Shown here one piece after another: positions 1 through 42,989 of a stretch of 64,000 bases of DNA. Each line of letters begins with the position of its first letter. The stretch's first letter is position 1. Made by a program: the position numbers and the translations under genes. Source of the DNA: Amphiura filiformis (Eukaryota > Echinodermata > Ophiuroidea > Amphilepidida > Amphiuridae); contig NC_092635.1 of NCBI RefSeq assembly GCF_039555335.1, positions 53,573,755 to 53,637,754 of the forward strand, in the 5' to 3' direction. Below the pieces are notes generated by a model, which ran no database searches, had not been told where the DNA came from, and was given only the letters and a program-made list of their open reading frames with translations.

Positions 1-74
1 GTAAAGCTGGATTAGAAAACGTATCATTTTAAATTTTGATACTTGCATGGTAAATAAAAACAAATACCACTTAC

Positions 75-550
75 TCGTTGTATCGTCATCTTTGATGCAA
101 ATAGTTGTCGTAATTTGGCAATCTGCAAGGCTCCCTTCTGAAGGATTCGAAAGAGCTACTTCGAAACATTCGGTTTCCTCAACAATCATGTCGTCGTCTA
201 TGTCTACAGTAAACATGGCGATGTTTATACTACTTCCGAAGGTAACAGCAGTTGTTGGCAGTGTATAGTCAGTGTTTGATGTTGTGATGTCTTTTTCAAC
301 AAGGGCTAGAAAAGAGTGAATGAATAAAGAATTAATCATAGTTATTTTGAAACCAGGCCCCTCGGCGACAAAAGCATTCAAAACAAAGGTCCTTTCTCCA
401 AAATGACAACGTGAACATAAATATGTTCCTACTGTATGCACTTACTTATCGTAGATTGATCGGTCCCCTCTCCAGTTCGGATTACATTCACATCTAATGA
501 TGTGTCGCCTTCAAGAACACAATAGAATTCTCTTTCAAATTTGAAAACAC
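75..550 (-). CDS. Calx-beta module, array unit 1 (type A), both exons in frame
   Basis: Exon a is 446-550 (105 bp, 35 codons) and exon b is 75-305 (231 bp, 77 codons). A 140-bp intron separates them, and both introns are phase 1 with GTAAGT donors. Joined, they give a 112-residue Calx-beta domain: strand FKFEREFYCVLEGD, then SLDVNVIRTGEGTDQS, then VTFGSSINIAMFTVDIDDD, then EETECFEVALSNPS, ending CIKDDDTT. The DIDDD and DDD acidic clusters are the usual Calx-beta Ca2+-binding positions. This copy has SEGSL instead of SKGSL and TTAVTF instead of TTSVTF; the latter variant is shared only with unit 14. This is the most 3' module visible. Confidence 0.9.
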
Positions 551-1340
551 CTGCAATGAGAAGATATTAAACAAGCAAGATTATATTTAAATGTATTCAT
601 ATAAGAACAAAACAAATGCCCAATATTTTGGGACTGAGTGTTACGAAGTCTGAGAGAGTGAACAAAACCTTTTCAACTCCATGCTGTTTGCTAATAGCAT
701 TTGCTATTGGTAAGCGAAGTTGAACAGCCATCAATTTCATTCTGACGCCTATCTCATGCTAGATAAATCAGCTTCCTAAAATTTGACTGTGCAACTGACT
801 TAATCGAATACGTAGAAAATCAGCTTCATGCTATATAAATCAGCATCCTAAAATTTGACTGTGCAACTGGACTTAATCGAATACGTAGAAAATCAGTTTA
901 AAAAATCAAAGAAAGATGACACAATCAAAGTTGATATGAATAAGCACTAGCAATGTACATATCTAACACAAATCACAAGTCCATGTCTATATTAAAGATT
1001 TGTACACTTTCAAAATGAGTTTATTTTACATAAAACACTGAGCTACCCTGGAGCAAAATTAGAATTACCAACTTGCTTGATTTTCGAACAAAAATAAAGA
1101 AGAACAGATACGCACTTTAGTTTTTCTCGTACGAAAGAATAAATGTTACTGTGAACTTCAAAATACAATATTCTTATTGGAAATTAATGTGAGAGTAACT
1201 AGTAGTAAAAATTACATTTGAAAAAAGTATGTCTATAATAACGTATTTGTAGTTTAGATGTTTTCTGTAAAGCTGGATTAGAAAACGTATCATTTTAAAT
1301 TTTGATACTTGCATGGTAAATAAAAACAAATACCACTTAC

Positions 1341-1815
1341 TCGTTGTATCGTCATCTTTGATGCAAATAGTTGTCGTAATTTGGCAATCTGCAAGGCTCC
1401 CATTTGAAGGATTCGAAAGAGCTACTTCGAAACATTCGGTTTCCTCAACAATCATGTCGTCGTCTATGTCTACAGTAAACATGGCGATGTTTATACTACT
1501 TCCGAAGGTAACAGAAGTTGTTGGCAGTGTATAGTCAGTGTTTGATGTTGTGATGTCTTTTCAACAAGGGCTAGAAAAGAGTGAATGAATAAAGAATTAA
1601 TCATAGTTATTTTGAAACCAGGCCCCTCGACGACAAAAGCATTCAAAACAAAGGTCCTTTCTCCAAAATGACAACGTGAACATAAATATGTTCCTACTGT
1701 ATGCACTTACTTATCGTAGATTGATCGGTCCCCTCTCCAGTTCGGATTACATTCACATCTAATGATGTGTCGCCTTCAAGAACACAATAGAATTCTCTTT
1801 CAAATTTGAAAACAC
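1341..1815 (-). CDS. Calx-beta module, array unit 2 (type C), exon b frameshifted
   Basis: Exon a 1711-1815 is intact at 105 bp. Exon b 1341-1570 is 230 bp: the T-run just inside its acceptor (about 1557-1561) has one base fewer, which shifts the frame from the first few codons after VEK. The downstream reading frame, including DIDDD and IKDDD, is otherwise preserved. It carries the type-C sequence NPSNGSL with an N-G-S sequon. This is the only copy with this particular deletion. Confidence 0.85.
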
Positions 1816-2534
1816 CTGCAATGAGAAGATATTAAACAAGCAAGATTATATTTAAATGTATTAATATCAGAACAAAACAAATGCCCAATATTTTGGGACT
1901 GAGTGTTACGAAGTCTGAGAGAGTGAACAAAAAAACTTTTCAACTCCATGCTGTTTGCTAATAGCATTTGCTATTAGTAAGCGAAGTTGAACAGCCATCA
2001 ATTTCATTCTTACGCCTATTTCATGCTAGATAAATCAGCTTCCTAAAATTTGACTGTGCAACTGGACTTAATCGAATACGTAGAAAATCAGTTTTAAAAA
2101 TCAAAGAAAGATGACACAATCAAAGTTGATATGAATAAGCACTAGCAATGTACATGTCTAACACAAATCACTAGTCCATGTCTATATTAAAGATTTGTAC
2201 ACTTTCAAAATGAGTTTATTTTACATAAAACACTGAGCTACCTTGGAGCAAAATTAGAATTACCAACTTGCTTGATTTTCGAACAAAAATAAAGAAGAAC
2301 AGATACGCACTTTAGTTTTTCTCGTACGAAAGAATAAATGTTACTGTGAACTTCAAAATACAATATTCTTATTGGAAATTAATGTGAGAGTAACTAGTAG
2401 TAAAAATTACATTTGAAAAAGTATGTCTATAATAACGTATTTGTAGTTTAGATGTTTTCTGTAAAGCTGGATTAGAAAACGTATCATTTTAAATTTTGAT
2501 ACTTGCATGGTAAATAAAAACAAATACCACTTAC

Positions 2535-3009
2535 TCGTTGTATCGTCATCTTTGATGCAAATAGTTGTCGTAATTTGGCAATCTGCAAGGCTCCCTTTGA
2601 AGGATTCGAAAGAGCTACTTCGAAACATTCGGTTTCCTCAACAATCATGTCGTCGTCTATGTCTACAGTAAACATGGCGATGTTTATACTACTTCCGAAG
2701 GTAACAGAAGTTGTTGGCAGTGTATAGTCAGTGTTTGATGTTGTGATGTCTTTTTCAACAAGGGCTAGAAAAGAGTGAATGAATAAAGAATTAATCATAG
2801 TTATTTTGAAACCAGGCCCCTCGGCGACAAAAGCATTCAAAACAAAGGTCCTTTCTCCAAAATGACAACGTGAACATAAATATGTTAATACTGTATGCAC
2901 TTACTTATCGTAGATTGATCGGTCCCCTCTCCAGTTCGGATTACATTCACATCTAATGATGTGTCGCCTTCAAGAACACAATAGAATTCTCTTTCAAATT
3001 TGAAAACAC
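2535..3009 (-). CDS. Calx-beta module, array unit 3 (type A), exon b frameshifted
   Basis: Exon a 2905-3009 is intact. Exon b 2535-2764 is 230 bp because the A-run after NPS is one base short (plus-strand ccctttgaag instead of cccttttgaag). The frame slips into GALQIAKLRQ and loses the terminal IKDDD in frame. The same deletion recurs in units 6, 9, 12 and 17. Confidence 0.85.
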
Positions 3010-3803
3010 CTGCAATGAGAAGATATTAAACAAGCAAGAATATATTTAAATGTATTCATATAAGAACAAAACAAATGCCCAATATTTTGGGACTGAGTGT
3101 TACGAAGTCTGAGAGAGTGAACCAAAACCTTTTCAACTCCATGCTGTTTGCTAATAGCATTTGCTATTGGTAAGCGAAGTTGAACAGCCATCAATTTCAT
3201 TCTGACGCCTATCTCATGCTAGATAAATCAGCTTCCTAAAATTTGACTGTGCAACTGGACTTAATCGAATACGTAGAAAATCAGTTTCTCTCATGCTATT
3301 AAATCAGCATCCTAAAATTTGACTGTGCAACTGGACTTAATCGAATACGTAGAAAATCAGTTTAAAAAATCAAAGAAAGATGACACAATCAAAGTTGATA
3401 TGAATAAGCACTAGCAATGTACATATCTAACACAAATCACAAGTCCATGTCTATATTAAAGATTTGTACACTTTCAAAATGAGTTTATTTTACATAAAAC
3501 ACTGAGCTACCCTGGAGCAAAATTAGAATTACCAACTTGCTTGATTTTCGAACAAAAATAAAGAAGAACAGATACGCACTTTAGTTTTTCTCGTACGAAA
3601 GAATAAATGTTACTGTGAACTTCAAAATACAATATTCTTATTGGAAATTAATGTGAGAGTAACTAGTAGTAAAAATTACATTTGAAAAAGTATGTCTATA
3701 ATAACGTATTTGTAGTTTAGATGTTTTCTGTAAAGCTGGATTAGAAAACGTATCATTTTAAATTTTGATACTTGCATGGTAAATAAAAACAAATACCACT
3801 TAC

Positions 3804-4278
3804 TCGTTGTATCGTCATCTTTGATGCAAATAGTTGTCGTAATTTGGCAATCTGCAAGGCTCCTTTTGAAGGATTCGAAAGAGCTACTTCGAAACATTCG
3901 GTTTCCTCAACAATCATGTCGTCGTCTATGTCTACAGTAAACATGGCGATGTTTATACTACTTCCGAAGGTAACAGAAGTTGTTGGCAGTGTATAGTCAG
4001 TGTTTGATGTTGTGATGTCTTTTTCAACAAGGGCTAGAAAAGAGTGAATGAATAAAGAATTAATCATAGTTATTTTGAAACCAGGCCCCTCGGCGACAAA
4101 AGCATTCAAAACAAAGGTCCTTTCTCCAAAATGACAACGTGAACATAAATATGTTCCTACTGTATGCACTTACTTATCGTAGATTGATCGGTCCCCTCTC
4201 CAGTTCGGATTACATTCACATCTAATGATGTGTCGCCTTCAAGAACACAATAGAATTCTCTTTCAAATTTGAAAACAC
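3804..4278 (-). CDS. Calx-beta module, array unit 4 (type B), exon b frameshifted
   Basis: Exon a 4174-4278 is intact. Exon b 3804-4033 is 230 bp: one G is missing from the GGG that follows NPSK (plus-strand ctccttttg), at nearly the same place as the unit 3 deletion but in the adjacent G-run. The unit lacks the intronic duplication, so its period is short. Confidence 0.85.
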
Positions 4279-4996
4279 CTGCAATGAGAAGATATTAAAC
4301 AAGCAAGATTATATTTAAATGTATTCATATAAGAACAAAACAAATGCCCAATATTTTGGGACTGAGTGTTACGAAGTCTGAGAGAGTGAACCAAAACCTT
4401 TTCAACTCCATGCTGTTTGCTAATAGCATTTGCTATTGGTAAGCGAAGTTGAACAGCCATCAATTTCATTCTGACGCCTATCTCATGCTAGATAAATCAG
4501 CTTCCTAAAATTTGACTGTGCAACTGGACTTAATCGAATACGTAGAAAATCAGTTTTAAAAATCAAAGAAAGATGACACAATCAAAGTTGATATGAATAA
4601 GCACTAGCAATGTACATATCTAACACAAATCACAAGTCCATGTCTATATTAAAGATTTGTACACTTTCAAAATGAGTTTATTTTACATAAAACACTGAGC
4701 TACCCTGGAGCAAAATTAGAATTACCAACTTGCTTGATTTTCGAACAAAAATAAAGAAGAACAGATACGCACTTTAGTTTTTCTCGTACGAAAGAATAAA
4801 TGTTACTGTGAACTTCAAAATACAATATTCTTATTGGAAATTAATGTGAGAGTAACTAGTAGTAAAAATTACATTTGAAAAAGTATGTCTATAATAACGT
4901 ATTTGTAGTTTAGATGTTTTCTGTAAAGCTGGATTAGAAAACGTATCATTTTAAATTTTGATACTTGCATGGTAAATAAAAACAAATACCACTTAC

Positions 4997-5473
4997 TCGT
5001 TGTATCGTCATCTTTGATGCAAATAGTTGTCGTAATTTGGCAATCTGCAAGGCTCCCATTTGAAGGATTCGAAAGAGCTACTTGAAACATTCGGTTTCCT
5101 CAACAATCATGTCGTCGTCTATGTCTACAGTAAACATGGCGATGTTTATACTACTTCCGAAGGTAACAGAAGTTGTTGGCAGTGTATAGTCAGTGTTTGA
5201 TGTTGTGATGTCTTTTTCAACAAGGGCTAGAAAAGAGTGAATGAATAAAGAATTAATCATAGTTATTTTGAAACCAGGCCCCTCGACGACAAAAGCATTC
5301 AAAACAAAGGTCCTTTCTCTCAAAAATGACAACGTGAACATAAATATGTTCCTACTGTATGCACTTACTTATCGTAGATTGATCGGTTCCCTCTCCAGTT
5401 CGGATTACATTCACATCTAATGATGTGTCGCCTTCAAGAACACAATAGAATTCTCTTTCAAATTTGAAAACAC
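4997..5473 (-). CDS. Calx-beta module, array unit 5 (type C), exon b frameshifted
   Basis: Exon a 5369-5473 is intact with one silent change in the GEG codons. Exon b 4997-5226 is 230 bp: TTCGAA within the ECFEVA codons has lost its C, near 5083. The same loss is found in units 8, 13 and 19, all type C or C-like. It carries the N-G-S sequon. Confidence 0.85.
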
Positions 5474-6190
5474 CTGCAATGAGAAGATATTAAACAAGCA
5501 AGATTATATTTAAATGTATTAATATCAGAACAAAACAAATGCCCAATATTTTGGGACTGAGTGTTACGAAGTCTGAGAGAGTGAACAAAAAACTTTTCAA
5601 CTCCATGCTGTTTGCTAATAGCATTTGCTATTAGTAAGCGAAGTTGAACAGCCATCAATTTCATTCTTACGCCTATTTCATGCTAGATAAATCAGCTTCC
5701 TAAAATTTGACTGTGCAACTGGACTTAATCGAATACGTAGAAAATCAGTTTTAAAAATCAAAGAAAGATGACACAATCAAAGTTGATATGAATAAGCACT
5801 AGCAATGTACATGTCTAACACAAATCACTAGTCCATGTCTATATTAAAGATTTGTACACTTTCAAAATGAGTTTATTTTACATAAAACACTGAGCTACCT
5901 TGGATCAAAATTAGAATTACCAACTTGCTTGATTTTGGAACAAAAATAAAGAAGAACAGATACGCACTTTAGTTTTTCTCGTACGAAAGAATAAATGTTA
6001 CTGTGAACTTCAAAATACAATATTCTTATTGGAAATTAATGTGAGAGTAACTAGTAGTAAAAATTACATTTGAAAAAGTATGTCTATAATAACGTATTTG
6101 TAGTTTAGATGTTTTCTGTAAAGCTGGATTAGAAAACGTATCATTTTAAATTTTGATACTTGCATGGTAAATAAAACAAATACCACTTAC

Positions 6191-6665
6191 TCGTTGTATC
6201 GTCATCTTTGATGCAAATAGTTGTCGTAATTTGGCAATCTGCAAGGCTCCCTTTGAAGGATTCGAAAGAGCTACTTCGAAACATTCGGTTTCCTCAACAA
6301 TCATGTCGTCGTCTATGTCTACAGTAAACATGGCGATGTTTATACTACTTCCGAAGGTAACAGAAGTTGTTGGCAGTGTATAGTCAGTGTTTGATGTTGT
6401 GATGTCTTTTTCAACAAGGGCTAGAAAAGAGTGAATGAATAAAGAATTAATCATAGTTATTTTGAAACCAGGCCCCTCGGCGACAAAAGCATTCAAAACA
6501 AAGGTCCTTTCTCCAAAAATGACAACGTGAACATAAATATGTTAATACTGTATGCACTTACTTATCGTAGATTGATCGGTCCCTCTCCAGTTCGGATTAC
6601 ATTCACATCTAATGATGTGTCGCCTTCAAGAACACAATAGAATTCTCTTTCAAATTTGAAAACAC
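6191..6665 (-). CDS. Calx-beta module, array unit 6 (type A), both exons frameshifted
   Basis: Exon a 6562-6665 is 104 bp because the GGGG within the codons for GEGT has lost one G. Exon b 6191-6420 is 230 bp with the same A-run loss as unit 3. Splice sites are intact. Confidence 0.83.
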
Positions 6666-7459
6666 CTGCAATGAGAAGATATTAAACAAGCAAGAATATA
6701 TTTAAATGTATTCATATAAGAACAAAACAAATGCCCAATATTTTGGGACTGAGTGTTACGAAGTCTGAGAGAGTGAACCAAAACCTTTTCAACTCCATGC
6801 TGTTTGCTAATAGCATTTGCTATTGGTAAGCGAAGTTGAACAGCCATCAATTTCATTCTGACGCCTATCTCATGCTAGATAAATCAGCTTCCTAAAATTT
6901 GACTGTGCAACTGGACTTAATCGAATACGTAGAAAATCAGTTTCTCTCATGCTATATAAATCAGCATCCTAAAATTTGACTGTGCAACTGGACTTAATCG
7001 AATACGTAGAAAATCAGTTTAAAAATCAAAGAAAGATGACACAATCAAAGTTGATATGAATAAGCACTAGCAATGTACATATCTAACACAAATCACAAGT
7101 CCATGTCTATATTAAAGATTTGTACACTTTCAAAATGAGTTTATTTTACATAAAACACTGAGCTACCCTGGAGCAAAATTAGAATTACCAACTTGCTTGA
7201 TTTTCGAACAAAAATAAAGAAGAACAGATACGCACTTTAGTTTTTCTCGTACGAAAGAATAAATGTTACTGTGAACTTCAAAATACAATATTCTTATTGG
7301 AAATTAATGTGAGAGTAACTAGTAGTAAAAATTACATTTGAAAAAGTATGTCTATAATAACGTATTTGTAGTTTAGATGTTTTCTGTAAAGCTGGATTAG
7401 AAAACGTATCATTTTAAATTTTGATACTTGCATGGTAAATAAAAACAAATACCACTTAC

Positions 7460-7936
7460 TCGTTGTATCGTCATCTTTGATGCAAATAGTTGTCGTAATT
7501 TGGCAATCTGCAAGGCTCCCTTTTGAAGGATTCGAAAGAGCTACTTCGAAACATTCGGTTTCCTCAACAATCATGTCGTCGTCTATGTCTACAGTAAACA
7601 TGGCGATGTTTATACTACTTCCGAAGGTAACAGAAGTTGTTGGCAGTGTATAGTCAGTGTTTGATGTTGTGATGTCTTTTTCAACAAGGGCTAGAAAAGA
7701 GTGAATGAATAAAGAATTAATCATAGTTATTTTGAAACCAGGCCCCTCGGCGACAAAAGCATTCAAAACAAAGGTCCTTTCTCCAAAAATGACAACGTGA
7801 ACATAAATATGTTCCTACTGTATGCACTTACTTATCGTAGATTGATCGGTCCCCTCTCCAGTTCGGATTACATTCACATCTAATGATGTGTCGCCTTCAA
7901 GAACACAATAGAATTCTCTTTCAAATTTGAAAACAC
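7460..7936 (-). CDS. Calx-beta module, array unit 7 (type B), both exons in frame
   Basis: Exon a 7832-7936 is 105 bp and exon b 7460-7690 is 231 bp. Both are open and phase 1 at both ends, giving a full 112-residue domain with the SKGSL variant (no N-G-S sequon). One of five fully in-frame units. Confidence 0.9.
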
Positions 7937-8654
7937 CTGCAATGAGAAGATATTAAACAAGCAAGATTATATTTAAATGTATTCATATAAGAACAAAACA
8001 AATGCCCAATATTTTGGGACTGAGTGTTACGAAGTCTGAGAGAGTGAACAAAAACCTTTTCAACTCCATGCTGTTTGCTAATAGCATTTGCTATTGGTAA
8101 GCGAAGTTGAACAGCCATCAATTTCATTCTGACGCCTATCTCATGCTAGATAAATCAGCTTCCTAAAATTTGACTGTGCAACTGGACTTAATCGAGTACG
8201 TAGAAAATCAGTTTTAAAATTCAAAGAAAGATGACACAATCAAAGTTGATATGAATAAGCACTAGCAATGTACATATCTAACACAAATCACAAGTCCATG
8301 TCTATATTAAAGATTTGTACACTTTCAAAATGAGTTTATTTTACATAAAACACTGAGCTACCCTGGAGCAAAATTAGAATTACCAACTTGCTTGATTTTC
8401 GAACAAAAATAAAGAAGAACAGATACGCACTTTAGTTTTTCTCGTACGAAAGAATAAATGTTACTGTGAACTTCAAAATACAATATTCTTATTGGAAATT
8501 AATGTGAGAGTAACTAGTAGTAAAAATTACATTTGAAAAAATATGTCTATAATAACGTATTTGTAGTTTAGATGTTTTCTGTAAAGCTGGATTAGAAAAC
8601 GTATCATTTTAAATTTTGATACTTGCATGGTAAATAAAAACAAATACCACTTAC

Positions 8655-9130
8655 TCGTTGTATCGTCATCTTTGATGCAAATAGTTGTCGTAATTTGGCA
8701 ATCTGCAAGGCTCCCATTTGAAGGATTCGAAAGAGCTACTTGAAACATTCGGTTTCCTCAACAATCATGTCGTCGTCTATGTCTACAGTAAACATGGCGA
8801 TGTTTATACTACTTCCGAAGGTAACAGAAGTTGTTGGCAGTGTATAGTCAGTGTTTGATGTTGTGATGTCTTTTTCAACAAGGGCTAGAAAAGAGTGAAT
8901 GAATAAAGAATTAATCATAGTTATTTTGAAACCAGGCCCCTCGACGACAAAAGCATTCAAAACAAAGGTCCTTTCTCCAAAAATGACAACGTGAACATAA
9001 ATATGTTCCTACTGTATGCACTTACTTATCGTAGATTGATCGGTCCCCTCTCCAGTTCGGATTACATTCACATCTAATGATGTGTCGCCTTCAAGAACAC
9101 AATAGAATTCTCTTTCAAATTTGAAAACAC
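8655..9130 (-). CDS. Calx-beta module, array unit 8 (type C), exon b frameshifted
   Basis: Exon a 9026-9130 is intact. Exon b 8655-8884 is 230 bp through loss of C in TTCGAA. NPSNGSL is retained beyond the shift. Confidence 0.85.
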
Positions 9131-9847
9131 CTGCAATGAGAAGATATTAAACAAGCAAGATTATATTTAAATGTATTAATATCAGAACAAAACAAATGCC
9201 CAATATTTTGGGACTGAGTGTTACGAAGTCTGAGAGAGTGAACAAAAACTTTTCAACTCCATGCTGTTTGCTAATAGCATTTGCTATTAGTAAGCGAAGT
9301 TGAACAGCCATCAATTTCATTCTTACGCCTATTTCATGCTAGATAAATCAGCTTCCTAAAATTTGACTGTGCAACTGGACTTAATCGAATACGTAGAAAA
9401 TCAGTTTTAAAAATCAAAGAAAGATGACACAATCAAAGTTGATATGAATAAGCACTAGCAATGTACATGTCTAACACAAATCACTAGTCCATGTCTATAT
9501 TAAAGATTTGTACACTTTCAAAATGAGTTTATTTTACATAAAACACTGAGCTACCTTGGATCAAAATTAGAATTACCAACTTGCTTGATTTTCGAACAAA
9601 AATAAAGAAGAACAGATACGCACTTTAGTTTTTCTCGTACGAAAGAATAAATGTTACTGTGAACTTCAAAATACAATATTCTTATTGGAAATTAATGTGA
9701 GAGTAACTAGTAGTAAAAATTACATTTGAAAAAGTATGTCTATAATAACGTATTTGTAGTTTAGATGTTTTCTGTAAAGCTGGATTAGAAAACGTATCAT
9801 TTTAAATTTTGATACTTGCATGGTAAATAAAAACAAATACCACTTAC

Positions 9848-10322
9848 TCGTTGTATCGTCATCTTTGATGCAAATAGTTGTCGTAATTTGGCAATCTGCA
9901 AGGCTCCCTTTGAAGGATTCGAAAGAGCTACTTCGAAACATTCGGTTTCCTCAACAATCATGTCGTCGTCTATGTCTACAGTAAACATGGCGATGTTTAT
10001 ACTACTTCCGAAGGTAACAGAAGTTGTTGGCAGTGTATAGTCAGTGTTTGATGTTGTGATGTCTTTTTCAATATTGGCTAGAAAAGAGTGAATGAATAAA
10101 GAATTAATCATAGTTATTTTGAAACCAGGCCCCTCGGCGACAAAAGCATTCAAAACAAAGGTCCTTTCTCCAAAGATGACAACGTGAACATAAATATGTT
10201 AATACTGTATGCACTTACTTATCGTAGATTGATCGGTCCCTCTCCAGTTCGGATTACATTCACATCTAATGATGTGTCGCCTTCAAGAACACAATAGAAT
10301 TCTCTTTCAAATTTGAAAACAC
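9848..10322 (-). CDS. Calx-beta module, array unit 9 (type A), both exons frameshifted
   Basis: Exon a 10219-10322 is 104 bp (G-run loss). Exon b 9848-10077 is 230 bp (A-run loss). The first codons of exon b differ from every other copy: NIEKD replaces LVEKD, produced by a cluster of neighbouring substitutions at about 10071-10076. That pattern looks more like a short template switch than independent point changes. Confidence 0.83.
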
Positions 10323-11116
10323 CTGCAATGAGAAGATATTAAACAAGCAAGAATATATTTAAATGTATTCATATAAGAACAAAACAAATGCCCAATATTT
10401 TGGGACTGAGTGTTACGAAGTCTGAGAGAGTGAACCAAAACCTTTTCAACTCCATGCTGTTTGCTAATAGCATTTGCTATTGGTAAGCGAAGTTGAACAG
10501 CCATCAATTTCATTCTGACGCCTATCTCATGCTAGATAAATCAGCTTCCTAAAATTTGACTGTGCAACTGGACTTAATCGAATACGTAGAAAATCAGTTT
10601 CTCTCATGCTATATAAATCAGCATCCTAAAATTTGACTGTGCAACTGGACTTAATCGAATACGTAGAAAATCAGTTTAAAAAATCAAAGAAAGATGACAC
10701 AATCAAAGTTGATATGAATAAGCACTAGCAATGTACATATCTAACACAAATCACAAGTCCATGTCTATATTAAAGATTTGTACACTTTCAAAATGAGTTT
10801 ATTTTACATAAAACACTGAGCTACCCTGGAGCAAAATTAGAATTACCAACTTGCTTGATTTTCGAACAAAAATAAAGAAGAACAGATACGCACTTTAGTT
10901 TTTCTCGTACGAAAGAATAAATGTTACTGTGAACTTCAAAATACAATATTCTTATTGGAAATTAATGTGAGAGTAACTAGTAGTAAAAATTACATTTGAA
11001 AAAGTATGTCTATAATAACGTATTTGTAGTTTAGATGTTTTCTGTAAAGCTGGATTAGAAAACGTATCATTTTAAATTTGATACTTGCATGGTAAATAAA
11101 AACAAATACCACTTAC

Positions 11117-11593
11117 TCGTTGTATCGTCATCTTTGATGCAAATAGTTGTCGTAATTTGGCAATCTGCAAGGCTCCCATTTGAAGGATTCGAAAGAGCTA
11201 CTTCGAAACATTCGGTTTCCTCAACAATCATGTCGTCGTCTATGTCTACAGTAAACATGGCGATGTTTATACTACTTCCGAAGGTAACAGAAGTTGTTGG
11301 CAGTGTATAGTCAGTGTTTGATGTTGTGATGTCTTTTTCAACAAGGGCTAGAAAAGAGTGAATGAATAAAGAATTAATCATAGTTATTTTGAAACCAGGC
11401 CCCTCGACGACAAAAGCATTCAAAACAAAGGTCCTTTCTCCAAAAATGACAACGTGAACATAAATATGTTCCTACTGTATGCACTTACTTATCGTAGATT
11501 GATCGGTCCCCTCTCCAGTTCGGATTACATTCACATCTAATGATGTGTCGCCTTCAAGAACACAATAGAATTCTCTTTCAAATTTGAAAACAC
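11117..11593 (-). CDS. Calx-beta module, array unit 10 (type C), both exons in frame
   Basis: Exon a 11489-11593 (105 bp) and exon b 11117-11347 (231 bp) are both open. This C unit directly follows an A unit with no B between them, marking a two-unit (A C) rather than three-unit block. TTCGAA is intact here, and the module carries the N-G-S sequon. Confidence 0.9.
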
Positions 11594-12311
11594 CTGCAAT
11601 GAGAAGATATTAAACAAGCAAGATTATATTTAAATGTATTAATATCAGAACAAAACAAATGCCCAATATTTTGGGACTGAGTGTTACGAAGTCTGAGAGA
11701 GTGAACAAAAAACTTTTCAACTCCATGCTGTTTGCTAATAGCATTTGCTATTAGTAAGCGAAGTTGAACAGCCATCAATTTCATTCTTACGCCTATTTCA
11801 TGCTAGATAAATCAGCTTCCTAAAATTTGACTGTGCCACTGGACTTAATCGAGTACGTAGAAAATCAGTTTTAAAAATCAAAGAAAGATGACACAATCAA
11901 AGTTGATATGAATAAGCACTAGCAATGTACATGTCTAACACAAATCACTAGTCCATGTCTATATTAAAGATTTGTACACTTTCAAAATGAGTTTATTTTA
12001 CATAAAACACTGAGCTACCTTGGAGCAAAATTAGAATTACCAACTTGCTTGATTTTCGAACAAAAATAAAGAAGAACAGATACGCACTTTAGTTTTTCTC
12101 GTACGAAAGAATAAATGTTACTGTGAACTTCAAAATACAATATTCTTATTGGAAATTAATGTGAGAGTAACTAGTAGTAAAAATTACATTTGAAAAAGTA
12201 TGTCTATAATAACGTATTTGTAGTTTAGATGTTTTCTGTAAAGCTGGATTAGAAAACGTATCATTTTAAATTTTGATACTTGCATGGTAAATAAAAACAA
12301 ATACCACTTAC

Positions 12312-12787
12312 TCGTTGTATCGTCATCTTTGATGCAAATAGTTGTCGTAATTTGGCAATCTGCAAGGCTCCCTTTTGAAGGATTCGAAAGAGCTACTTCG
12401 AAACATTCGGTTTCCTCAACAATCATGTCGTCGTCTATGTCTACAGTAAACATGGCGATGTTTATACTACTTCCGAAGGTAACAGAAGTTGTTGGCAGTG
12501 TATAGTCAGTGTTTGATGTTGTGATGTCTTTTTCAACAAGGGCTAGAAAAGAGTGAATGAATAAAGAATTAATCATAGTTATTTTGAAACCAGGCCCCTC
12601 GGCGACAAAAGCATTCAAAACAAAGGTCCTTTCTCCAAAAATGACAACGTGAACATAAATATGTTAATACTGTATGCACTTACTTATCGTAGATTGATCG
12701 GTCCCTCTCCAGTTCGGATTACATTCACATCTAATGATGTGTCGCCTTCAAGAACACAATAGAATTCTCTTTCAAATTTGAAAACAC
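12312..12787 (-). CDS. Calx-beta module, array unit 11 (type A), exon a frameshifted
   Basis: Exon b 12312-12542 is intact at 231 bp with the SKGSL variant. Exon a 12684-12787 is 104 bp owing to the recurrent G-run loss in the codons for GEGT. Confidence 0.85.
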
Positions 12788-13580
12788 CTGCAATGAGAAG
12801 ATATTAAACAAGCAAGAATATATTTAAATGTATTCATATAAGAACAAAACAAATGCCCAATATTTTGGGACTGAGTGTTACGAAGTCTGAGAGAGTGAAC
12901 CAAAACCTTTTCAACTCCATGCTGTTTGCTAATAGCATTTGCTATTGGTAAGCGAAGTTGAACAGCCATCAATTTCATTCTGACGCCTATCTCATGCTAG
13001 ATAAATCAGCTTCCTAAAATTTGACTGTGCAACTGGACTTAATCGAATACGTAGAAAATCAGTTTCTCTCATGCTATATAAATCAGCATCCTAAAATTTG
13101 ACTGTGCAACTGGACTTAATCGAATACGTAGAAAATCAAAAAAAAAATCAAAGAAAGATGACACAATCAAAGTTGATATGAATAAGCACTAGCAATGTAC
13201 ATATCTAACACAAATCACAAGTCCATGTCTATATTAAAGATTTGTACACTTTCAAAATGAGTTTATTTTACATTAAACACTGAGCTACCCTGGAGCAAAA
13301 TTAGAATTACCAACTTGCTTGATTTTCGAACAAAAATAAAGAAGAACAGATACGCACTTTAGTTTTTCTCGTACGAAAGAATAAATGTTACTGTGAACTT
13401 CAAAATACAATATTCTTATTGGAAATTAATGTGAGAGTAACTAGTAGTAAAAATTACATTTGAAAAAGTATGTCTATAATAACGTATTTGTAGTTTAGAT
13501 GTTTTCTGTAAAGCTGGATTAGAAAACGTATCATTTTAAATTTGATACTTGCATGGTAAATAAAAACAAATACCACTTAC

Positions 13581-14054
13581 TCGTTGTATCGTCATCTTTG
13601 ATGCAAATAGTTGTCGTAATTTGGCAATCTGCAAGGCTCCCTTTGAAGGATTCGAAAGAGCTACTTCGAAACATTCGGTTTCCTCAACAATCATGTCGTC
13701 GTCTATGTCTACAGTAAACATGGCGATGTTTATACTACTTCGAAGGTAACAGAAGTTGTTGGCAGTGTATAGTCAGTGTTTGATGTTGTGATGTCTTTTT
13801 CAACAAGGGCTAGAAAAGAGTGAATGAATAAAGAATTAATCATAGTTATTTTGAAACCAGGCCCCTCGGCGACAAAAGCATTCAAAACAAAGGTCCTTTC
13901 TCCAAAACTGACAACGTGAACATAAATATGTTCCTACTGTATGCACTTACTTATCGTAGATTGATCGGTCCCTCTCCAGTTCGGATTACATTCACATCTA
14001 ATGATGTGTCGCCTTCAAGAACACAATAGAATTCTCTTTCAAATTTGAAAACAC
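13581..14054 (-). CDS. Calx-beta module, array unit 12 (type B), both exons frameshifted
   Basis: Exon b 13581-13809 is 229 bp with two deletions: the A-run after NPS, and one C in the acttccgaagg stretch near 13740. Exon a 13951-14054 is 104 bp (G-run). This is one of the two most damaged copies. Confidence 0.83.
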
Positions 14055-14773
14055 CTGCAATGAGAAGATATTAAACAAGCAAGATTATATTTAAATGTAT
14101 TCATATAAGAACAAAACAAATGCCCAATATTTTGGGACTGAGTGTTACGAAGTCTGAGAGAGTGAACCAAAACCTTTTCAACTCCATGCTGTTTGCTAAT
14201 AGCATTTGCTATTGGTAAGCGAAGTTGAACAGCCATCAATTTTTATTCTGACGCCTATCTCATGCTAGATAAATCAGCTTCCTAAAATTTGACTGTGCAA
14301 CTGGACTTAATCGAATACGTAGAAAATCAGTTTTAAAAATCAAAGAAAGATGACACAATCAAAGTTGATATGAATAAGCACTAGCAATGTACATATCTAA
14401 CACAAATCACAAGTCCATGTCTATATTAAAGATTTGTACACTTTCAAAATGAGTTTATTTTACATAAAACACTGAGCTACCCTGGAGCAAAATTAGAATT
14501 ACCAACTTGCTTGATTTTCGAACAAAAATAAAGAAGAACAGATACGCACTTTAGTTTTTCTCGTACGAAAGAATAAATGTTACTGTGAACTTCAAAATAC
14601 AATATTCTTATTGGAAATTAATGTGAGAGTAACTAGTAGTAAAAATTACATTTGAAAAAGTATGTCTATAATAACGTATTTGTAGTTTAGATGTTTTCTG
14701 TAAAGCTGGATTAGAAAACGTATCATTTTAAATTTTGATACTTGCATGGTAAATAAAACCAAATACCACTTAC

Positions 14774-15248
14774 TCGTTGTATCGTCATCTTTGATGCAAA
14801 TAGTTGTCGTAATTTGGCAATCTGCAAGGCTCCCATTTGAAGGATTCGAAAGAGCTACTTGAAACATTCGGTTTCTCAACAATCATGTCGTCGTCTATGT
14901 CTACAGTAAACATGGCGATGTTTATACTACTTCCGAAGGTAACAGAAGTTGTTGGCAGTGTATAGTCAGTGTTTGATGTTGTGATGTCTTTTTCAACAAG
15001 GGCTAGAAAAGAGTGAATGAATAAAGAATTAATCATAGTTATTTTGAAACCAGGCCCCTCGACGACAAAAGCATTTAAAACAAAGGTCCTTTCTCCAAAA
15101 ATGACAACGTGAACATAAATATGTTCCTACTGTATGCACTTACTTATCGTAGATTGATCGGTCCCCTCTCCAGTTCGGATTACATTCACATCTAATGATG
15201 TGTCGCCTTCAAGAACACAATAGAATTCTCTTTCAAATTTGAAAACAC
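14774..15248 (-). CDS. Calx-beta module, array unit 13 (type C), exon b with two deletions
   Basis: Exon a 15144-15248 is intact. Exon b 14774-15002 is 229 bp: it has the TTCGAA loss shared with units 5, 8 and 19, plus a private loss of one base in the tttcctc stretch near 14875. Confidence 0.83.
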
Positions 15249-15966
15249 CTGCAATGAGAAGATATTAAACAAGCAAGATTATATTTAAATGTATTAATAT
15301 CAGAACAAAACAAATGCCCAATATTTTGGGACTGAGTGTTACGAAGTCTGAGAGAGTGAACAAAAAACTTTTCAACTCCATGCTGTTTGCTAATAGCATT
15401 TGCTATTAGTAAGCGAAGTTGAACAGCCATCAATTTCATTCTTACGCCTATTTCATGCTAGATAAATCAGCTTCCTAAAATTTGACTGTGCAACTGGACT
15501 TAATCGAATACGTAGAAAATCAGTTTTAAAAATCAAAGAAAGATGACACAATCAAAGTTGATATGAATAAGCACTAGCAATGTACATGTCTAACACAAAT
15601 CACTAGTCCATGTCTATATTAAAGATTTGTACACTTTCAAAATGAGTTTATTTTACATAAAACACTGAGCTACCTTGGAGCAAAATTAGAATTACCAACT
15701 TGCTTGATTTTCGAACAAAAATAAAGAAGAACAGATACGCACTTTAGTTTTTCTCGTACGAAAGAATAAATGTTACTGTGAACTTCAAAATACAATATTC
15801 TTATTGGAAATTAATGTGAGAGTAACTAGTAGTAAAAATTACATTTGAAAAAGTATGTCTATAATAACGTATTTGTAGTTTAGATGTTTTCTGTAAAGCT
15901 GGATTAGAAAACGTATCATTTTAAATTTTGATACTTGCATGGTAAATAAAAACAAATACCACTTAC

Positions 15967-16443
15967 TCGTTGTATCGTCATCTTTGATGCAAATAGTTGT
16001 CGTAATTTGGCAATCTGCAAGGCTCCCTTTTGAAGGATTCGAAAGAGCTACTTCGAAACATTCGGTTTCCTCAACAATCATGTCGTCGTCTATGTCTACA
16101 GTAAACATGGCGATGTTTATACTACTTCCGAAGGTAACAGCAGTTGTTGGCAGTGTATAGTCAGTGTTTGATGTTGTGATGTCTTTTTCAACAAGGGCTA
16201 GAAAAGAGTGAATGAATAAAGAATTAATCATAGTTATTTTGAAACCAGGCCCCTCGGCGACAAAAGCATTCAAAACAAAGGTCCTTTCTCCAAAAATGAC
16301 CACGTGAACATAAATATGTTAATACTGTATGCACTTACTTATCGTAGATTGATCGGTCCCCTCTCCAGTTCGGATTACATTCACATCTAATGATGTGTCG
16401 CCTTCAAGAACACAATAGAATTCTCTTTCAAATTTGAAAACAC
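15967..16443 (-). CDS. Calx-beta module, array unit 14 (type A), both exons in frame
   Basis: Exon a 16339-16443 (105 bp) and exon b 15967-16197 (231 bp) are open. It shares TTAVTF with unit 1, 13 units away, consistent with exchange between distant A units. The upstream intron has the longest spacing (1272 bp to unit 15). Confidence 0.9.
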
Positions 16444-17238
16444 CTGCAATGAGAAGATATTAAACAAGCAAGAATATATTTAAATGTATTAATATAAGAA
16501 CAAAACAAATGCCCAATATTTTGGGACTGAGTGTTACGAAGTCTGAGAGAGTGAACCAAAACCTTTTCAACTCCATGCTGTTTGCTAATAGCATTTGCTA
16601 TTGGTAAGCGAAGTTGAACAGCCATCAATTTCATTCTGACGCCTATCTCATGCTAGATAAATCAGCTTCCTAAAATTTGACTGTGCAACTGGACTTAATC
16701 GAATACGTAGAAAATCAGTTTCTCTCATGCTATATAAATCAGCATCCTAAAATTTGACTGTGCAACTGGACTTAATCGAATACGTAGAAAATCAGTTTAA
16801 AAAATCAAAGAAAGATGACACAATCAAAGTTGATATGAATAAGCACTAGCAATGTACATATCTAACACAAATCACAAGTCCATGTCTATATTAAAGATTT
16901 GTACACTTTCAAAATGAGTTTATTTTACATAAAACACTGAGCTACCCTGGAGCAAAATTAGAATTACCAACTTGCTTGATTTTCGAACAAAAATAAAGAA
17001 GAACAGATACGCACTTTAGTTTTTCTCGTACGAAAGAATAAATGTTACTGTGAACTTCAAAATACAATATTCTTATTGGAAATTAATGTGAGAGTAACTA
17101 GTAGTAAAAATTACATTTGAAAAAGTATGTCTATAATAACGTATTTGTAGTTTAGATGTTTTCTGTAAAGCTGGATTAGAAAACGTATCATTTTAAATTT
17201 TGATACTTGCATGGTAAATAAAAACAAATACCACTTAC

Positions 17239-17713
17239 TCGTTGTATCGTCATCTTTGATGCAAATAGTTGTCGTAATTTGGCAATCTGCAAGGCTCCCT
17301 TTTGAAGGATTCGAAAGAGCTACTTCGAAACATTCGGTTTCCTCAACAATCATGTCGTCGTCTATGTCTACAGTAAACATGGCGATGTTTATACTACTTC
17401 CGAAGGTAACAGAAGTTGTTGGCAGTGTATAGTCAGTGTTTGATGTTGTGATGTCTTTTTCAACAAGGGCTAGAAAAGAGTGAATGAATAAAGAATTAAT
17501 CATAGTTATTTTGAAACCAGGCCCCTCGGCGACAAAAGCATTCAAAACAAAGGTCCTTTCTCCAAAATGACAACGTGAACATAAATATGTTCCTACTGTA
17601 TGCACTTACTTATCGTAGATTGATCGGTCCCTCTCCAGTTCGGATTACATTCACATCTAATGATGTGTCGCCTTCAAGAACACAATAGAATTCTCTTTCA
17701 AATTTGAAAACAC
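17239..17713 (-). CDS. Calx-beta module, array unit 15 (type B), exon a frameshifted
   Basis: Exon b 17239-17469 is intact (SKGSL). Exon a 17610-17713 is 104 bp from the recurrent G-run loss. Confidence 0.85.
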
Positions 17714-18431
17714 CTGCAATGAGAAGATATTAAACAAGCAAGATTATATTTAAATGTATTCATATAAGAACAAAACAAATGCCCAATATTTTGGGACTGA
17801 GTGTTACGAAGTCTGAGAGAGTGAACAAAAACCTTTTCAACTCCATGCTGTTTGCTAATAGCATTTGCTATTGGTAAGCGAAGTTGAACAGCCATCAATT
17901 TCATCCTGACGCCTATCTCATGCTAGATAAATCAGCTTCCTAAAATTTGACTGTGCAACTGGACTTAATCGAATACGTAGAAAATCAGTTTTAAAAATCA
18001 AAGAAAGATGACACAATCAAAGTTGATATGAATAAGCACTAGCAATGTACATATCTAACACAAATCACAAGTCCATGTCTATATTAAAGATTTGTACACT
18101 TTCAAAATGAGTTTATTTTACATAAAACACTGAGCTACCCTGGAGCAAAATTTGAATTACCAACTTGCTTGATTTTCGAACAAAAATAAAGAAGAACAGA
18201 TACGCACTTTAGTTTTTCTCGTACGAAAGAATAAATGTTACTGTGAACTTCAAAATACAATATTCTTATTGGAAATTAATGTGAGAGTAACTAGTAGTAA
18301 AAATTACATTTGAAAAAATATGTCTATAATAACGTAATTGTAGTTTAGATGTTTTCTGTAAAGCTGGATTAGAAAACGTATCATTTTAAATTTTGATACT
18401 TGCATGGTAAATAAAAACAAATACCACTTAC

Positions 18432-18907
18432 TCGTTGTATCGTCATCTTTGATGCAAATAGTTGTCGTAATTTGGCAATCTGCAAGGCTCCCATTTGAAG
18501 GATTCGAAAGAGCTACTTCGAAACATTCGGTTTCCTCAACAATCATGTCGTCGTCTATGTCTACAGTAAACATGGCGATGTTTATACTACTTCCGAAGGT
18601 AACAGAAGTTGTTGGCAGTGTATAGTCAGTGTTTGATGTTGTGATGTCTTTTTCAACAAGGGCTAGAAAAGAGTGAATGAATAAAGAATTAATCATAGTT
18701 ATTTTGAAACCAGGCCCCTCGACGACAAAAAGCATTCAAAACAAAGGTCCTTTCTCCAAAATGACAACGTGAACATAAATATGTTCCTACTGTATGCACT
18801 TACTTATCGTAGATTGATCGGTCCCTCTCCAGTTCGGATTACATTCACATCTAATGATGTGTCGCCTTCAAGAACACAATAGAATTCTCTTTCAAATTTG
18901 AAAACAC
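18432..18907 (-). CDS. Calx-beta module, array unit 16 (type C), exon a frameshifted
   Basis: Exon b 18432-18662 is intact with NPSNGSL. Exon a 18804-18907 is 104 bp. The 140-bp internal intron has one extra A (18724-18730 region), an indel outside the coding sequence. Confidence 0.85.
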
Positions 18908-19625
18908 CTGCAATGAGAAGATATTAAACAAGCAAGATTATATTTAAATGTATTAATATCAGAACAAAACAAATGCCCAATATTTTGGGACTGAGTGTTA
19001 CGAAGTCTGAGAGAGTGAACAAAAAACTTTTCAACTCCATGCTGTTTGCTAATAGCATTTGCTATTGGTAAGCGAAGTTGAACAGCCATCAATTTCATTC
19101 TTACGCCTATTTCATGCTAGATAAATCAGCTTCCTAAAATTTGACTGTGCAACTGGACTTAATCGAATACGTAGAAAATCAGTTTTAAAAATCAAAGAGA
19201 GATGACACAATCAAAGTTGATATGAATAAGCACTAGCAATGTACATGTCTAACACAAATCACTAGTCCATGTCTATATTAAAGATTTGTACACTTTCAAA
19301 ATGAGTTTATTTTATATAAAACACTGAGCTACCTTGGAGCAAAATTAGAATTACCAACTTGCTTGATTTTCGAACAAAAATAAAGAAGAACAGATACGCA
19401 CTTTAGTTTTTCTCGTACGAAAGAATAAATGTTACTGTGAACTTCAAAATACAATATTCTTATTGGAAATTAATGTGAGAGTAACTAGTAGTAAAAATTA
19501 CATTTGAAAAAGTATGTCTATAATAACGTATTTGTAGTTTAGATGTTTTCTGTAAAGCTGGATTAGAAAACGTATCATTTTAAATTTTGATACTTGCATG
19601 GTAAATTAAAACAAATACCACTTAC

Positions 19626-20101
19626 TCGTTGTATCGTCATCTTTGATGCAAATAGTTGTCGTAATTTGGCAATCTGCAAGGCTCCCTTTGAAGGATTCGA
19701 AAGAGCTACTTCGAAACATTCGGTTTCCTCAACAATCATGTCGTCGTCTATGTCTACAGTAAACATGGCGATGTTTATACTACTTCCGAAGGTAACAGAA
19801 GTTGTTGGCAGTGTATAGTCAGTGTTTGATGTTGTGATGTCTTTTTCAACAAGGGCTAGAAAAGAGTGAATGAATAAAGAATTAATCATAGTTATTTTGA
19901 AACCAGGCCCCTCGGCGACAAAAGCATTCAAAACAAAGGTCCTTTCTCCAAAACTGACAACGTGAACATAAATATGTTCCTACTGTATGCACTTACTTAT
20001 CGTAGATTGATCGGTCCCCTCTCCAGTTCGGATTACATTCACATCTAATGATGTGTCGCCTTCAAGAACACAATAGAATTCTCTTTCAAATTTGAAAACA
20101 C
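19626..20101 (-). CDS. Calx-beta module, array unit 17 (type B), exon b frameshifted
   Basis: Exon a 19997-20101 is intact. Exon b 19626-19855 is 230 bp (A-run loss). From this unit to the right the regular A-B-C order is lost. Confidence 0.85.
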
Positions 20102-20818: not shown

Positions 20819-21294
20819 TCGTTGTATCGTCATCTTTGATGCAAATAGTTGTCGTAATTTGGCAATCTGCAAGGCTCCCATTTGAAGGATTCGAAAGAGC
20901 TACTTCGAAACATTCGGTTTCCTCAACAATCATGTCGTCGTCTATGTCTACAGTAAACATGGCGATGTTTATACTACTTCCGAAGGTAACAGAAGTTGTT
21001 GGCAGTGTATAGTCAGTGTTTGATGTTGTGATGTCTTTTTCAACAAGGGCTAGAAAAGAGTGAATGAATAAAGAATTAATCATAGTTATTTTGAAACCAG
21101 GCCCCTCGGCGACAAAAGCATTCAAAACAAAGGTCCTTTCTCCAAAATGACAACGTGAACATAAATATGTTCCTACTGTATGCACTTACTTATCGTAGAT
21201 TGATCGGTCCCCTCTCCAGTTCGGATTACATTCACATCTAATGATGTGTCGCCTTCAAGAACACAATAGAATTCTCTTTCAAATTTGAAAACAC
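20819..21294 (-). CDS. Calx-beta module, array unit 18 (B/C hybrid), both exons in frame
   Basis: Exon a 21190-21294 (105 bp) and exon b 20819-21049 (231 bp) are open. Exon b has the type-C NPSNGSL, while the following intron and exon a side have B variants (ctcggcgac, attcatataag). The crossover therefore lies between about 20890 and 21110. Confidence 0.9.
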
Positions 21295-22012
21295 CTGCAA
21301 TGAGAAGATATTAAACAAGCAAGATTATATTTAAATGTATTCATATAAGAACAAAACAAATGCCCAATATTTTGGGACTGAGTGTTACGAAGTCTGAGAG
21401 AGTGAACAAAAACCTTTTCAACTCCATGCTGTTTGCTAATAGCATTTGCTATTGGTAAGCGAAGTTGAACAGCCATCAATTTCATCCTGAGGCCTATCTC
21501 ATGCTAGATAAATCAGCTTCCTAAAATTTGACTGTGCAACTGGACTTAATCGAGTACGTAGAAAATCAGTTTTAAAAATCAAAGAAAGATGACACAATCA
21601 AAGTTGATATGAATAAGCACTAGCAATGTATATGTCTAACACAAATCACAAGTCCATGTCTATATTAAAGATTTGTACACTTTCAAAATGAGTTTATTTT
21701 ACATAAAACACTGAGCTACCCTGGAGCAAAATTAGAATTACCAACTTGCTTGATTTTCGAACAAAAATAAAGAAGAACAGATACGCACTTTAGTTTTTCT
21801 CGTACCAAAGAATAAATGTTACTGTGAACTTCAAAATACAATATTCTTATTGGAAATTAATGTGAGAGTAACTAGTAGTAAAAATTACATTTGAAAAAAT
21901 ATGTCTATAATAACGTATTTGTAGTTTAGATGTTTTCTGTAAAGCTGGATTAGAAAACGTATCATTTTAAATTTTGATACTTGCATGGTAAATAAAAACA
22001 AATACCACTTAC

Positions 22013-22485
22013 TCGTTGTATCGTCATCTTTGATGCAAATAGTTGTCGTAATTTGGCAATCTGCAAGGCTCCCATTTGAAGGATTCGAAAGAGCTACTTG
22101 AAACATTCGGTTTCCTCAACAATCATGTCGTCGTCTATGTCTACAGTAAACATGGCGATGTTTATACTACTTCCGAAGGTAACAGAAGTTGTTGGCAGTG
22201 TATAGTCAGTGTTTGATGTTGTGATGTCTTTTTCAACAAGGGCTAGAAAAGAGTGAATGAATAAAGAATTAATCATAGTTATTTTGAAACCAGGCCCTCG
22301 GCGACAAAAGCATTCAAAACAAAGGTCCTTTCTCCAAAATGACAACGTGAACATAAATATGTTCCTACTGTATGCACTTACTTATCGTAGATTGATCGGT
22401 CCCTCTCCAGTTCGGATTACATTCACATCTAATGATGTGTCGCCTTCAAGAACACAATAGAATTCTCTTTCAAATTTGAAAACAC
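22013..22485 (-). CDS. Calx-beta module, array unit 19 (C-like, first module of the array), both exons frameshifted
   Basis: Exon b 22013-22242 is 230 bp (TTCGAA loss) and exon a 22382-22485 is 104 bp (G-run loss). It is the most 5' array module in the transcript and follows the single-copy exon 25376-25633; the phase-1 joint makes DDDDAPS then VFKFEREF. It mixes C variants (taatatcag) with A/B variants (ctattggtaag, ctgacgcctatctc). Confidence 0.83.
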
Positions 22486-22767
22486 CTGCAATGAGAAGAT
22501 ATTAAACAAGCAAGATTATATTTAAATGTATTAATATCAGAACAAAACAAATGCCCAATATTTTGGGACTGAGTGTTACGAAGTCTGAGAGAGTGAACAA
22601 TAAACTTTTCAACTCCATGCTGTTTGCTAATAGCATTTGCTATTGGTAAGCGAAGTTGAACAGCCATCAATTTCATTCTGACGCCTATCTCATGCTAGAT
22701 AAATCAGCTTCCTAAAATTTGACTGTGCAACTGGACTTAATCGAATACGTAGAAAATCAGTTTTAAA

Positions 22768-22919
22768 AGTCAAACAATTTCGTGTCTATATTAAAGATTT
22801 GTACATAATTTCAAAATCAATTAATTGTAAAGAAGGAATAAATGCTACTGTGAACTTCAAAATACAATATTCTTATTGGAAATTAATGTGAGAGTAACTA
22901 GTAGTAAAAATTACATTTA
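22768..22919 (-). repeat. Truncated right-hand edge of the array
   Basis: After unit 19 the intron sequence continues in degenerate form. About 150 bp of unit sequence is missing or diverged, in several interruptions between 22768 and 22845. The unit sequence then resumes (ctgtgaacttcaaaatac) up to acattt at 22914-22919, where it stops abruptly. This edge copy looks older than the array. Confidence 0.75.
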
Positions 22920-27706: not shown

Positions 27707-27724
27707 CGAGATGCTGGCCATCTG

Positions 27725-42965: not shown

Positions 42966-42989
42966 ATGACCGCCGTTCACGGCCCTCCG

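What the first reader, a model, noticed from the sequence alone, without database searches (positions are those of the whole stretch)
1..22919. Coding higher-order repeat: a giant Calx-beta array with alpha-satellite-like A-B-C organisation
Nineteen exon-pair units of three types are arranged A C A B C A B C A C A B C A B C B B/C C'. The repeating block is three units (about 3.66 kb), with two-unit (A C, about 2.46 kb) deletion derivatives. This is direct evidence that unequal crossing-over works on multi-unit blocks inside a protein-coding gene, with introns and exons homogenised together. Each exchange adds or removes two or three whole 112-residue domains in frame. The number of modules is therefore likely to differ between alleles and individuals.
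Basis: partly seen in the sequence, partly recalled or inferred. Interest (0 to 1): 0.88.

Follow-up and report, generated by a model that had tools for sequence, protein, structure and literature searches.

The report
Tandem Calx-beta exon-pair array, echinoderm gene
A gene, probably from a brittle star or a close relative, carries at least nineteen nearly identical copies of a calcium-binding-type protein module in three ordered versions; it resembles known human and spider genes that gain and lose modules, but most copies as assembled have small deletions that break the reading frame.

Summary
Window 1-22912 (minus strand) holds 19 tandem units of 1.19-1.27 kb, each with two exons (105 + 231 bp when complete, phase 1, GT-AG) encoding one Calx-beta domain.

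Three corrections. (1) Only C and A (without U19) are clades, B is paraphyletic, exons alone do not resolve types, and same-type units three apart are not significantly closer than other same-type pairs (P = 0.12): no strict block phylogeny. (2) As assembled, 14 of 19 units carry single-base exon deletions (20 in all) and no two adjacent units are in frame: consensus error or real damage, unresolved. (3) The gene extends upstream through eight intact unique exons to 52125.

The closest named relatives are Amphiura filiformis (brittle star) proteins, some of which amplify a different Calx-beta module. Coding arrays with multi-module exchange are known (LPA KIV-2, CR1, nebulin, spider silk): a new member of a known kind. 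Copy-number variation is untested.

The parts
1..22912 (-). Tandem array of 19 two-exon Calx-beta units (U19 at the left to U01 at the right); continues to the window's left edge, so its 3' end is not seen
22013..22485 (-). U01, first (5') array unit, mosaic C'; exons 22382-22485 and 22013-22242, both one base short
20819..21294 (-). U02, type B with one C-like exon base, fully in frame; exons 21190-21294 and 20819-21049
3804..20101 (-). Other B units: U03, U05, U08, U13, U16 (only U13, exons 7832-7936 and 7460-7690, fully in frame)
1341..18907 (-). C units: U04, U07, U10, U12, U15, U18 (only U10, exons 11489-11593 and 11117-11347, fully in frame)
75..16443 (-). A units: U06, U09, U11, U14, U17, U19 (U06, exons 16339-16443 and 15967-16197, and U19, exons 446-550 and 75-305, fully in frame)
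16646..16798 (.). 77-bp intron tandem duplication that marks type A (U06); also 12990-13138, 10525-10677, 6868-7020, 3212-3363, and about 752-899 in U19
25376..25624 (-). d2 exon 2 (unique Calx-beta), splices in phase into the array
26012..26119 (-). d2 exon 1
29539..29787 (-). d3 exon 2
31063..31176 (-). d3 exon 1
32031..32288 (-). d4 exon 2
32967..33089 (-). d4 exon 1
46506..46823 (-). d5 exon 2 (Pfam Calx-beta match below the cutoff: 20.8 bits against 27)
52006..52125 (-). d5 exon 1, the most 5' exon found; no signal-peptide exon found in the window

Best explanation
A large animal gene on the minus strand, echinoderm and most likely brittle star, encodes an extracellular protein built of Calx-beta domains: d5-d4-d3-d2, then at least 19 copies of one module. 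The run grew by intragenic unequal exchange. A unit of two symmetric phase-1 exons with its introns was duplicated; a C lineage diverged; A arose from B by a 77-bp intron duplication; C-B-A blocks were multiplied and B was lost from some; exchange or conversion inside units made hybrids (U19, U01). Each whole-unit exchange adds or removes 112-residue domains in frame, so protein length is free to vary. Each domain is predicted to be a Ca2+-binding beta-sandwich, together a stiff rod. Shown: anatomy, types, order, domain family, phases, upstream exons. Inferred: exchange history, Ca2+ rod, extracellular place, expression, organism, and that the array works despite the frame-breaking deletions in this assembly (I lean 60:40 to site-specific consensus error).
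For: Unit anatomy and 76 of 76 canonical splice dinucleotides. Calx-beta by Pfam and by best PDB match, a Na/Ca exchange protein (3rb5, 2e-14 for two joined units), with aligned acidic stretches. Non-random order. On introns C clade 100 and A clade (without U19) 96 ultrafast bootstrap. Hybrids U19 and U01. Eight unique exons, each a multiple of 3 long, no stop through 513 residues, each matched in one frame by Amphiura proteins. Three of six Amphiura relatives carry 8, 9 and 4 near-identical copies of another module, so module amplification recurs in this family.
Against: 14 of 19 units carry single-base exon deletions and no two adjacent units are in frame. Within-type shuffles show no significant block-level signal. 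B is paraphyletic and exon trees are unresolved. Deletions sit at a few sites rather than across homopolymers, and the one at column 1193 is only in C/C' units (4 of 4, P = 0.009), which fits real inherited damage. No transcript, read or second individual. The array-type module in Amphiura P0097 is present only three times (by eye).
Confidence: 0.7

Rival explanations
1. The array is real but decaying: the frameshifts are true, the array part of the gene no longer makes a long protein, and exchange spreads broken units.
For: 20 exon deletions in 14 of 19 units, none in 1539 bp of unique exons where 4.8 are expected (P = 0.008); exons have more indels per substitution than introns (18:9 against 19:39, P = 0.005); deletions concentrated at a few sites, not spread over homopolymers; column 1193 confined to C/C'.
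Against: 76 of 76 splice dinucleotides intact, no insertion column in exons and no stop created by substitution seen; the column-884 deletion occurs in A, B, C and C' backgrounds, which needs several independent events or short conversions.
Confidence: 0.3
2. Copy number is inflated by assembly: for example, two haplotypes of one 8-unit stretch were joined head to tail.
For: U04-U11 and U12-U19 have the same type order, CBACBACA.
Against: Lag-8 partners are not closer than other same-type pairs (P = 0.35); given six blocks, two of them without B, 3 of 15 placements would give the same halves by chance (my arithmetic).
Confidence: 0.15
3. The similarity is kept mainly by gene conversion between units, with little crossing-over.
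For: Hybrid units U19 and U01 and no block-level signal.
Against: Conversion does not create 19 units or the repeated type order by itself; unit gain and loss is needed.
Confidence: 0.2

Closest known systems
[quoted passage not shown]
   Same: Intragenic tandem array; each unit is two short exons (about 160 and 182 bp) with two introns encoding one domain; near-identical units with subtypes named A, B and C (passages of PMC11462820)
   Different: 5.6-kb unit, kringle domain, 1 to about 40 copies per allele. Here a 1.2-kb unit, Calx-beta, ordered three-type blocks, allelic variation unknown
Spider dragline silk MaSp1
   Same: Four repeat types in a consistent order form a higher-level unit iterated 20 times inside coding sequence; unequal crossing-over is invoked, and homogenised repeated introns and exons of other silk genes are mentioned (passages of PMC1885213)
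   Different: MaSp1 is a single exon of short silk motifs, not folded domains with introns
CR1 long homologous repeats
   Same: Repeat blocks gained or lost by unequal crossing-over, alleles with 3-6 blocks (one passage of PMC4842007)
   Different: Another protein family (its short consensus repeat domains are recalled, from no call); allele data exist there
Nebulin triplicate region
   Same: Eight-exon block repeated within a gene, copy number variable between alleles (passages of PMC12402328)
   Different: Actin-binding repeats; population and clinical data exist there
Amphiura filiformis Calx-beta proteins P0001, P0004-P0008, P0097
   Same: P0004, P0005 and P0008 share d5, d4 and d3 with this gene (P0006 in part); P0007 has d2-like domains; P0001 and P0097 carry the array-type module
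   Different: The modules amplified there are of the TWYSLDC kind (8, 9 and 4 copies in P0004, P0005, P0006); P0097 shows three array-type modules, visibly diverged from one another (by eye; identity not computed)
ADGRV1/VLGR1
   Same: Long ectodomain with 35 Calx-beta domains (passages of PMC10323441)
   Different: I identified no receptor part in this window (no dedicated search made); the gene's 3' end lies outside it

Membership tests
Calx-beta domain (PF03160) | Profile score above the curated cutoff | tested here: met
   51.1 bits against 27 for the spliced U02 unit, residues 2-110 of 112
Calx-beta domain (PF03160) | Ca2+ binding | not testable with these tools
   Only aligned acidic stretches against 3rb5; the structure job was not returned
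Higher-order repeat array | Distinct unit types in a repeated fixed order | tested here: met
   Core CBACBACACBACBACA, P = 2e-5
Higher-order repeat array | Units of one type form a clade across blocks | tested here: inconclusive
   Introns: C 100, A without U19 96, B paraphyletic; exons unresolved
Higher-order repeat array | Blocks homogenised as wholes (neighbouring blocks closer than distant ones, type for type) | tested here: not met
   Within-type shuffles P = 0.12 (lag 3) and 0.35 (lag 8); few informative sites, so low power
Coding VNTR of the LPA KIV-2 kind | Tandem exon-pair units that keep the reading frame | tested here: inconclusive
   Exons 105 and 231 bp in 5 of 19 units; 14 of 19 carry one to three single-base deletions
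Coding VNTR of the LPA KIV-2 kind | Copy number differs between alleles | not testable with these tools
   One sequence only; no genome held
Amphiura-type Calx-beta gene family | d5-d4-d3 domains in order | tested here: met
   tblastn of six Amphiura proteins finds the unique exons in order on one strand
Amphiura-type Calx-beta gene family | N-terminal signal peptide; C-terminal EGF repeats or membrane anchor | tested here: inconclusive
   P0008 N-terminus and EGF part gave no convincing signal or EGF exon in the window; the 3' end lies beyond the left edge
ADGRV1 | GAIN domain and seven-helix part | not tested
   3' end of the gene is outside the window; relative P0097 has only a sub-threshold GAIN-subdomain hit (21.6 bits, cutoff 21.7)

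The most novel reading that the evidence does not exclude
A brittle-star surface protein whose length is set by a fast-changing array in which broken (frameshifted) and intact modules are shuffled together; because every exon is symmetric, broken exons could be skipped, so individuals would differ both in module number and in which modules are usable.
Probability: 0.12. Interest if true: 0.7.

Novelty: new member of a known kind. Interest (0 to 1): 0.42.

Why it matters
If the array is intact and varies between individuals, it would be an invertebrate parallel to the human LPA KIV-2 array with clearer block order: a natural test of how multi-module exchange tunes the length of an extracellular protein. 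The Amphiura relatives suggest that one gene family amplifies different modules in different genes, so the family could show which module is chosen and why. If the frameshifts are real, the array shows how exchange can also spread damage.

Tried and rejected
Own-genome search: no genome is held for the window. Rfam at gathering threshold and the tRNA scan found nothing. A strict block phylogeny and an 8-unit duplication were tested by within-type shuffles and not supported (B units U05/U13 and U08/U16 do share bases at columns 115 and 688). Nearness of exon deletions to CpG, as a possible sign of read error, was not significant (P = 0.58). For the short form of exon 1 I looked by eye (sequence) at the next GT as donor: it leaves an in-frame stop. 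My regular expression for array-type modules in P0097 found none because the spelling differs; the count of three is by eye. One script stopped half-way on a coding mistake; its remaining tests were rerun. Paper searches: of the titles listed (20 of 465, 1 of 1, 5 of 5, 11 of 11, 8 of 75, 1 of 1) none describes a Calx-beta array of this kind in an echinoderm; they cover only the held open library. One passage of PMC5460417 reports a Frem/Fras-like protein with five Calx-beta domains in echinoderm skeleton, a different architecture.
Full report
OBSERVATION. The first 22.9 kb of the window are one tandem array. Over 94% of the 16-mers in each full kilobase up to 22 kb recur in the window, with spacings that include 1193/1194, 2464, 3657 and 9778 bp. 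Nineteen exon-1 starts and nineteen exon-2 ends were found, all on the minus strand. Array homology stops at 22912; the left edge is cut by the window, so 19 is a minimum. Each unit is a long intron, exon 1 (105 bp when complete), a short intron and exon 2 (231 bp). All 76 splice dinucleotides (19 units x 4) are AG or GT. The spliced unit is a 112-residue Calx-beta domain (51.1 bits against a cutoff of 27); the best solved match is a Na/Ca exchange protein, 3rb5, E = 2e-14 for two joined units.

TYPES AND ORDER. A 77-bp intron duplication marks type A (U06, 09, 11, 14, 17, 19; 73-77 bases of it) and a set of single bases marks type C (U04, 07, 10, 12, 15, 18); the rest are B, with U01 a mosaic. 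Left to right this is A C A B C A B C A C A B C A B C B B C'. U01 was left out of the order tests and of the trees. For U04-U19 the order has only four kinds of neighbour pair (P = 2e-5) and four CBA words (P = 0.0013); for all 18 units P = 0.012 and 0.006. Substitution distances are 1-7 within C (15 pairs), 0-10 within A (15), 3-10 within B (15), 5-17 between A and B (36), 15-23 between A and C (36) and 12-18 between B and C (36); U01 lies 9-18 from all the others. Maximum-likelihood trees on introns, with the duplication region left out, give C 100 and A without U19 96, with B paraphyletic; on all columns C 100 and A 91; exons resolve nothing.

Mean distance is lowest at lags 3 and 8 (6.4 and 4.5, against 9.6-15.6 at the other lags up to 9), but that follows from type. 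When units are shuffled within type, lag 3 (P = 0.12), lag 5 (0.70) and lag 8 (0.35) are not special; with indels counted, 0.08, 0.63 and 0.63. Few sites are informative, so power is low. The types and their order are real; block-by-block homogenisation is not shown. The left-most A (U19) carries the duplication but B-like bases at columns 923-924, and U01 is B-like, then C-like, then B-like: exchange or conversion also acts inside units.

THE GENE AROUND IT. Eight further exons lie on the same strand: 52006-52125, 46506-46823, 32967-33089, 32031-32288, 31063-31176, 29539-29787, 26012-26119 and 25376-25624. Their borders are AG and GT, their lengths are divisible by 3, their phase is 1, and they read through 513 residues without a stop. 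Seven were first seen as open frames, which could bias against broken ones; tblastn with six Amphiura filiformis proteins then gave best matches in one frame at all seven and at 52006-52125. d5 exon 2 scores below the Pfam cutoff on its own (20.8 against 27). The last exon splices in phase into the array. In Amphiura, P0004, P0005 and P0008 share d5, d4 and d3 (P0006 in part), and P0004, P0005 and P0006 carry 8, 9 and 4 similar copies of another module, TWYSLDC (82-96, 69-98 and 93-97% identity between copies; one P0005 copy is frame-altered). P0001 has two array-type modules, the second cut short, and P0097 has three, visibly diverged, counted by eye. P0001 is 53% identical to the unit over 99% of it. 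Amphiura gives the one named protein of three hits, the five best of 93 and the best of 113. Other named animals in these lists score far lower: Paramuricea clavata, Holothuria leucospilota and Dysidea avara. Many other hits are bacterial or unnamed. So I infer a brittle star or a close echinoderm; the species is unknown.

THE PROBLEM. In the assembled sequence 14 of 19 units carry one to three single-base exon deletions, 20 in all; only U02, U06, U10, U13 and U19 are fully in frame, and no two of these are adjacent. Read literally, translation stops in U01, the first array unit. The unique exons have none in 1539 bp, where 4.8 are expected at the array rate (P = 0.008; the events are not independent, so this is rough). 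For consensus error: no insertion column in exons, no stop created by substitution seen, intact splice sites, and the column-884 deletion on A, B, C and C' backgrounds. Against general homopolymer error: 23 of 27 scored intronic runs of four or more show 0 of 18 units with a deletion, while the exon G4 and A4 runs show 6 of 18 each and one intron T5 run 7 of 18 (U01 left out); exons have more indels per substitution than introns (18:9 against 19:39, P = 0.005; U01 and the duplication region left out); and the column-1193 deletion is confined to C/C' units (4 of 4, P = 0.009, one of three recurrent exon sites). I lean 60:40 to site-specific consensus error, without proof.

MECHANISM. Best supported: duplication and deletion of whole units by unequal exchange, A arising from B by the 77-bp duplication, C-B-A multiplication, loss of B from some blocks, and exchange or conversion within units. 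The halves U04-U11 and U12-U19 have the same type order, which could be one 8-unit duplication, chance (3 of 15 placements of the two missing Bs, my arithmetic) or joined haplotypes; distances favour none. Function, inferred: a Ca2+-stiffened extracellular rod whose length changes in 112-residue steps.

NOVELTY. Two-exon, one-domain coding arrays with A/B/C subtypes and variable copy number are known in LPA KIV-2 (passages, PMC11462820). Blocks exchanged within genes are known in CR1 (one passage, PMC4842007), copy-variable eight-exon blocks in nebulin (passages, PMC12402328), and ordered four-type coding repeats in spider silk (passages, PMC1885213). ADGRV1 has 35 Calx-beta domains (passages, PMC10323441). 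None of the titles listed describes such an array in an echinoderm Calx-beta gene. I file it as a new member of a known kind.

Noticed in passing
window 27707-28594 (+): Open frame with a reverse-transcriptase match (RVT_1, 1e-7), probably a LINE-type element, in the intron between exons d3e2 and d2e1
   Followed up: no
window 58257-59279 and 58095-58268: 44-bp minisatellite of 23.5 copies next to a 21-bp repeat of 8.5 copies
   Followed up: no
window 34381-34944, 36951-37569, 42988-43246, 30079-30703: Further tandem repeats with periods of 30, 145, 95 and 308 bp
   Followed up: no
Amphiura P0005, second TWYSLDC unit: A frame-altered stretch inside one unit of an otherwise regular nine-unit array, reminiscent of the frameshifts seen here
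   Followed up: partly
Amphiura contigs: Relatives of d5-d4-d3 (P0005, P0006, P0008) are listed on a contig of 67,844,303 bp (P0004 on one of 1,116,000), relatives of d2 and the array module (P0007, P0001, P0097) and P0137 on one of 68,856,880 bp; the gene in this window joins both sets
   Followed up: no
P0002, an unnamed ENA protein from a 571-bp contig: 86% identical over 45% of the unit and similar past the splice site into the intron, so a close relative of the unit exists in another sample
   Followed up: no
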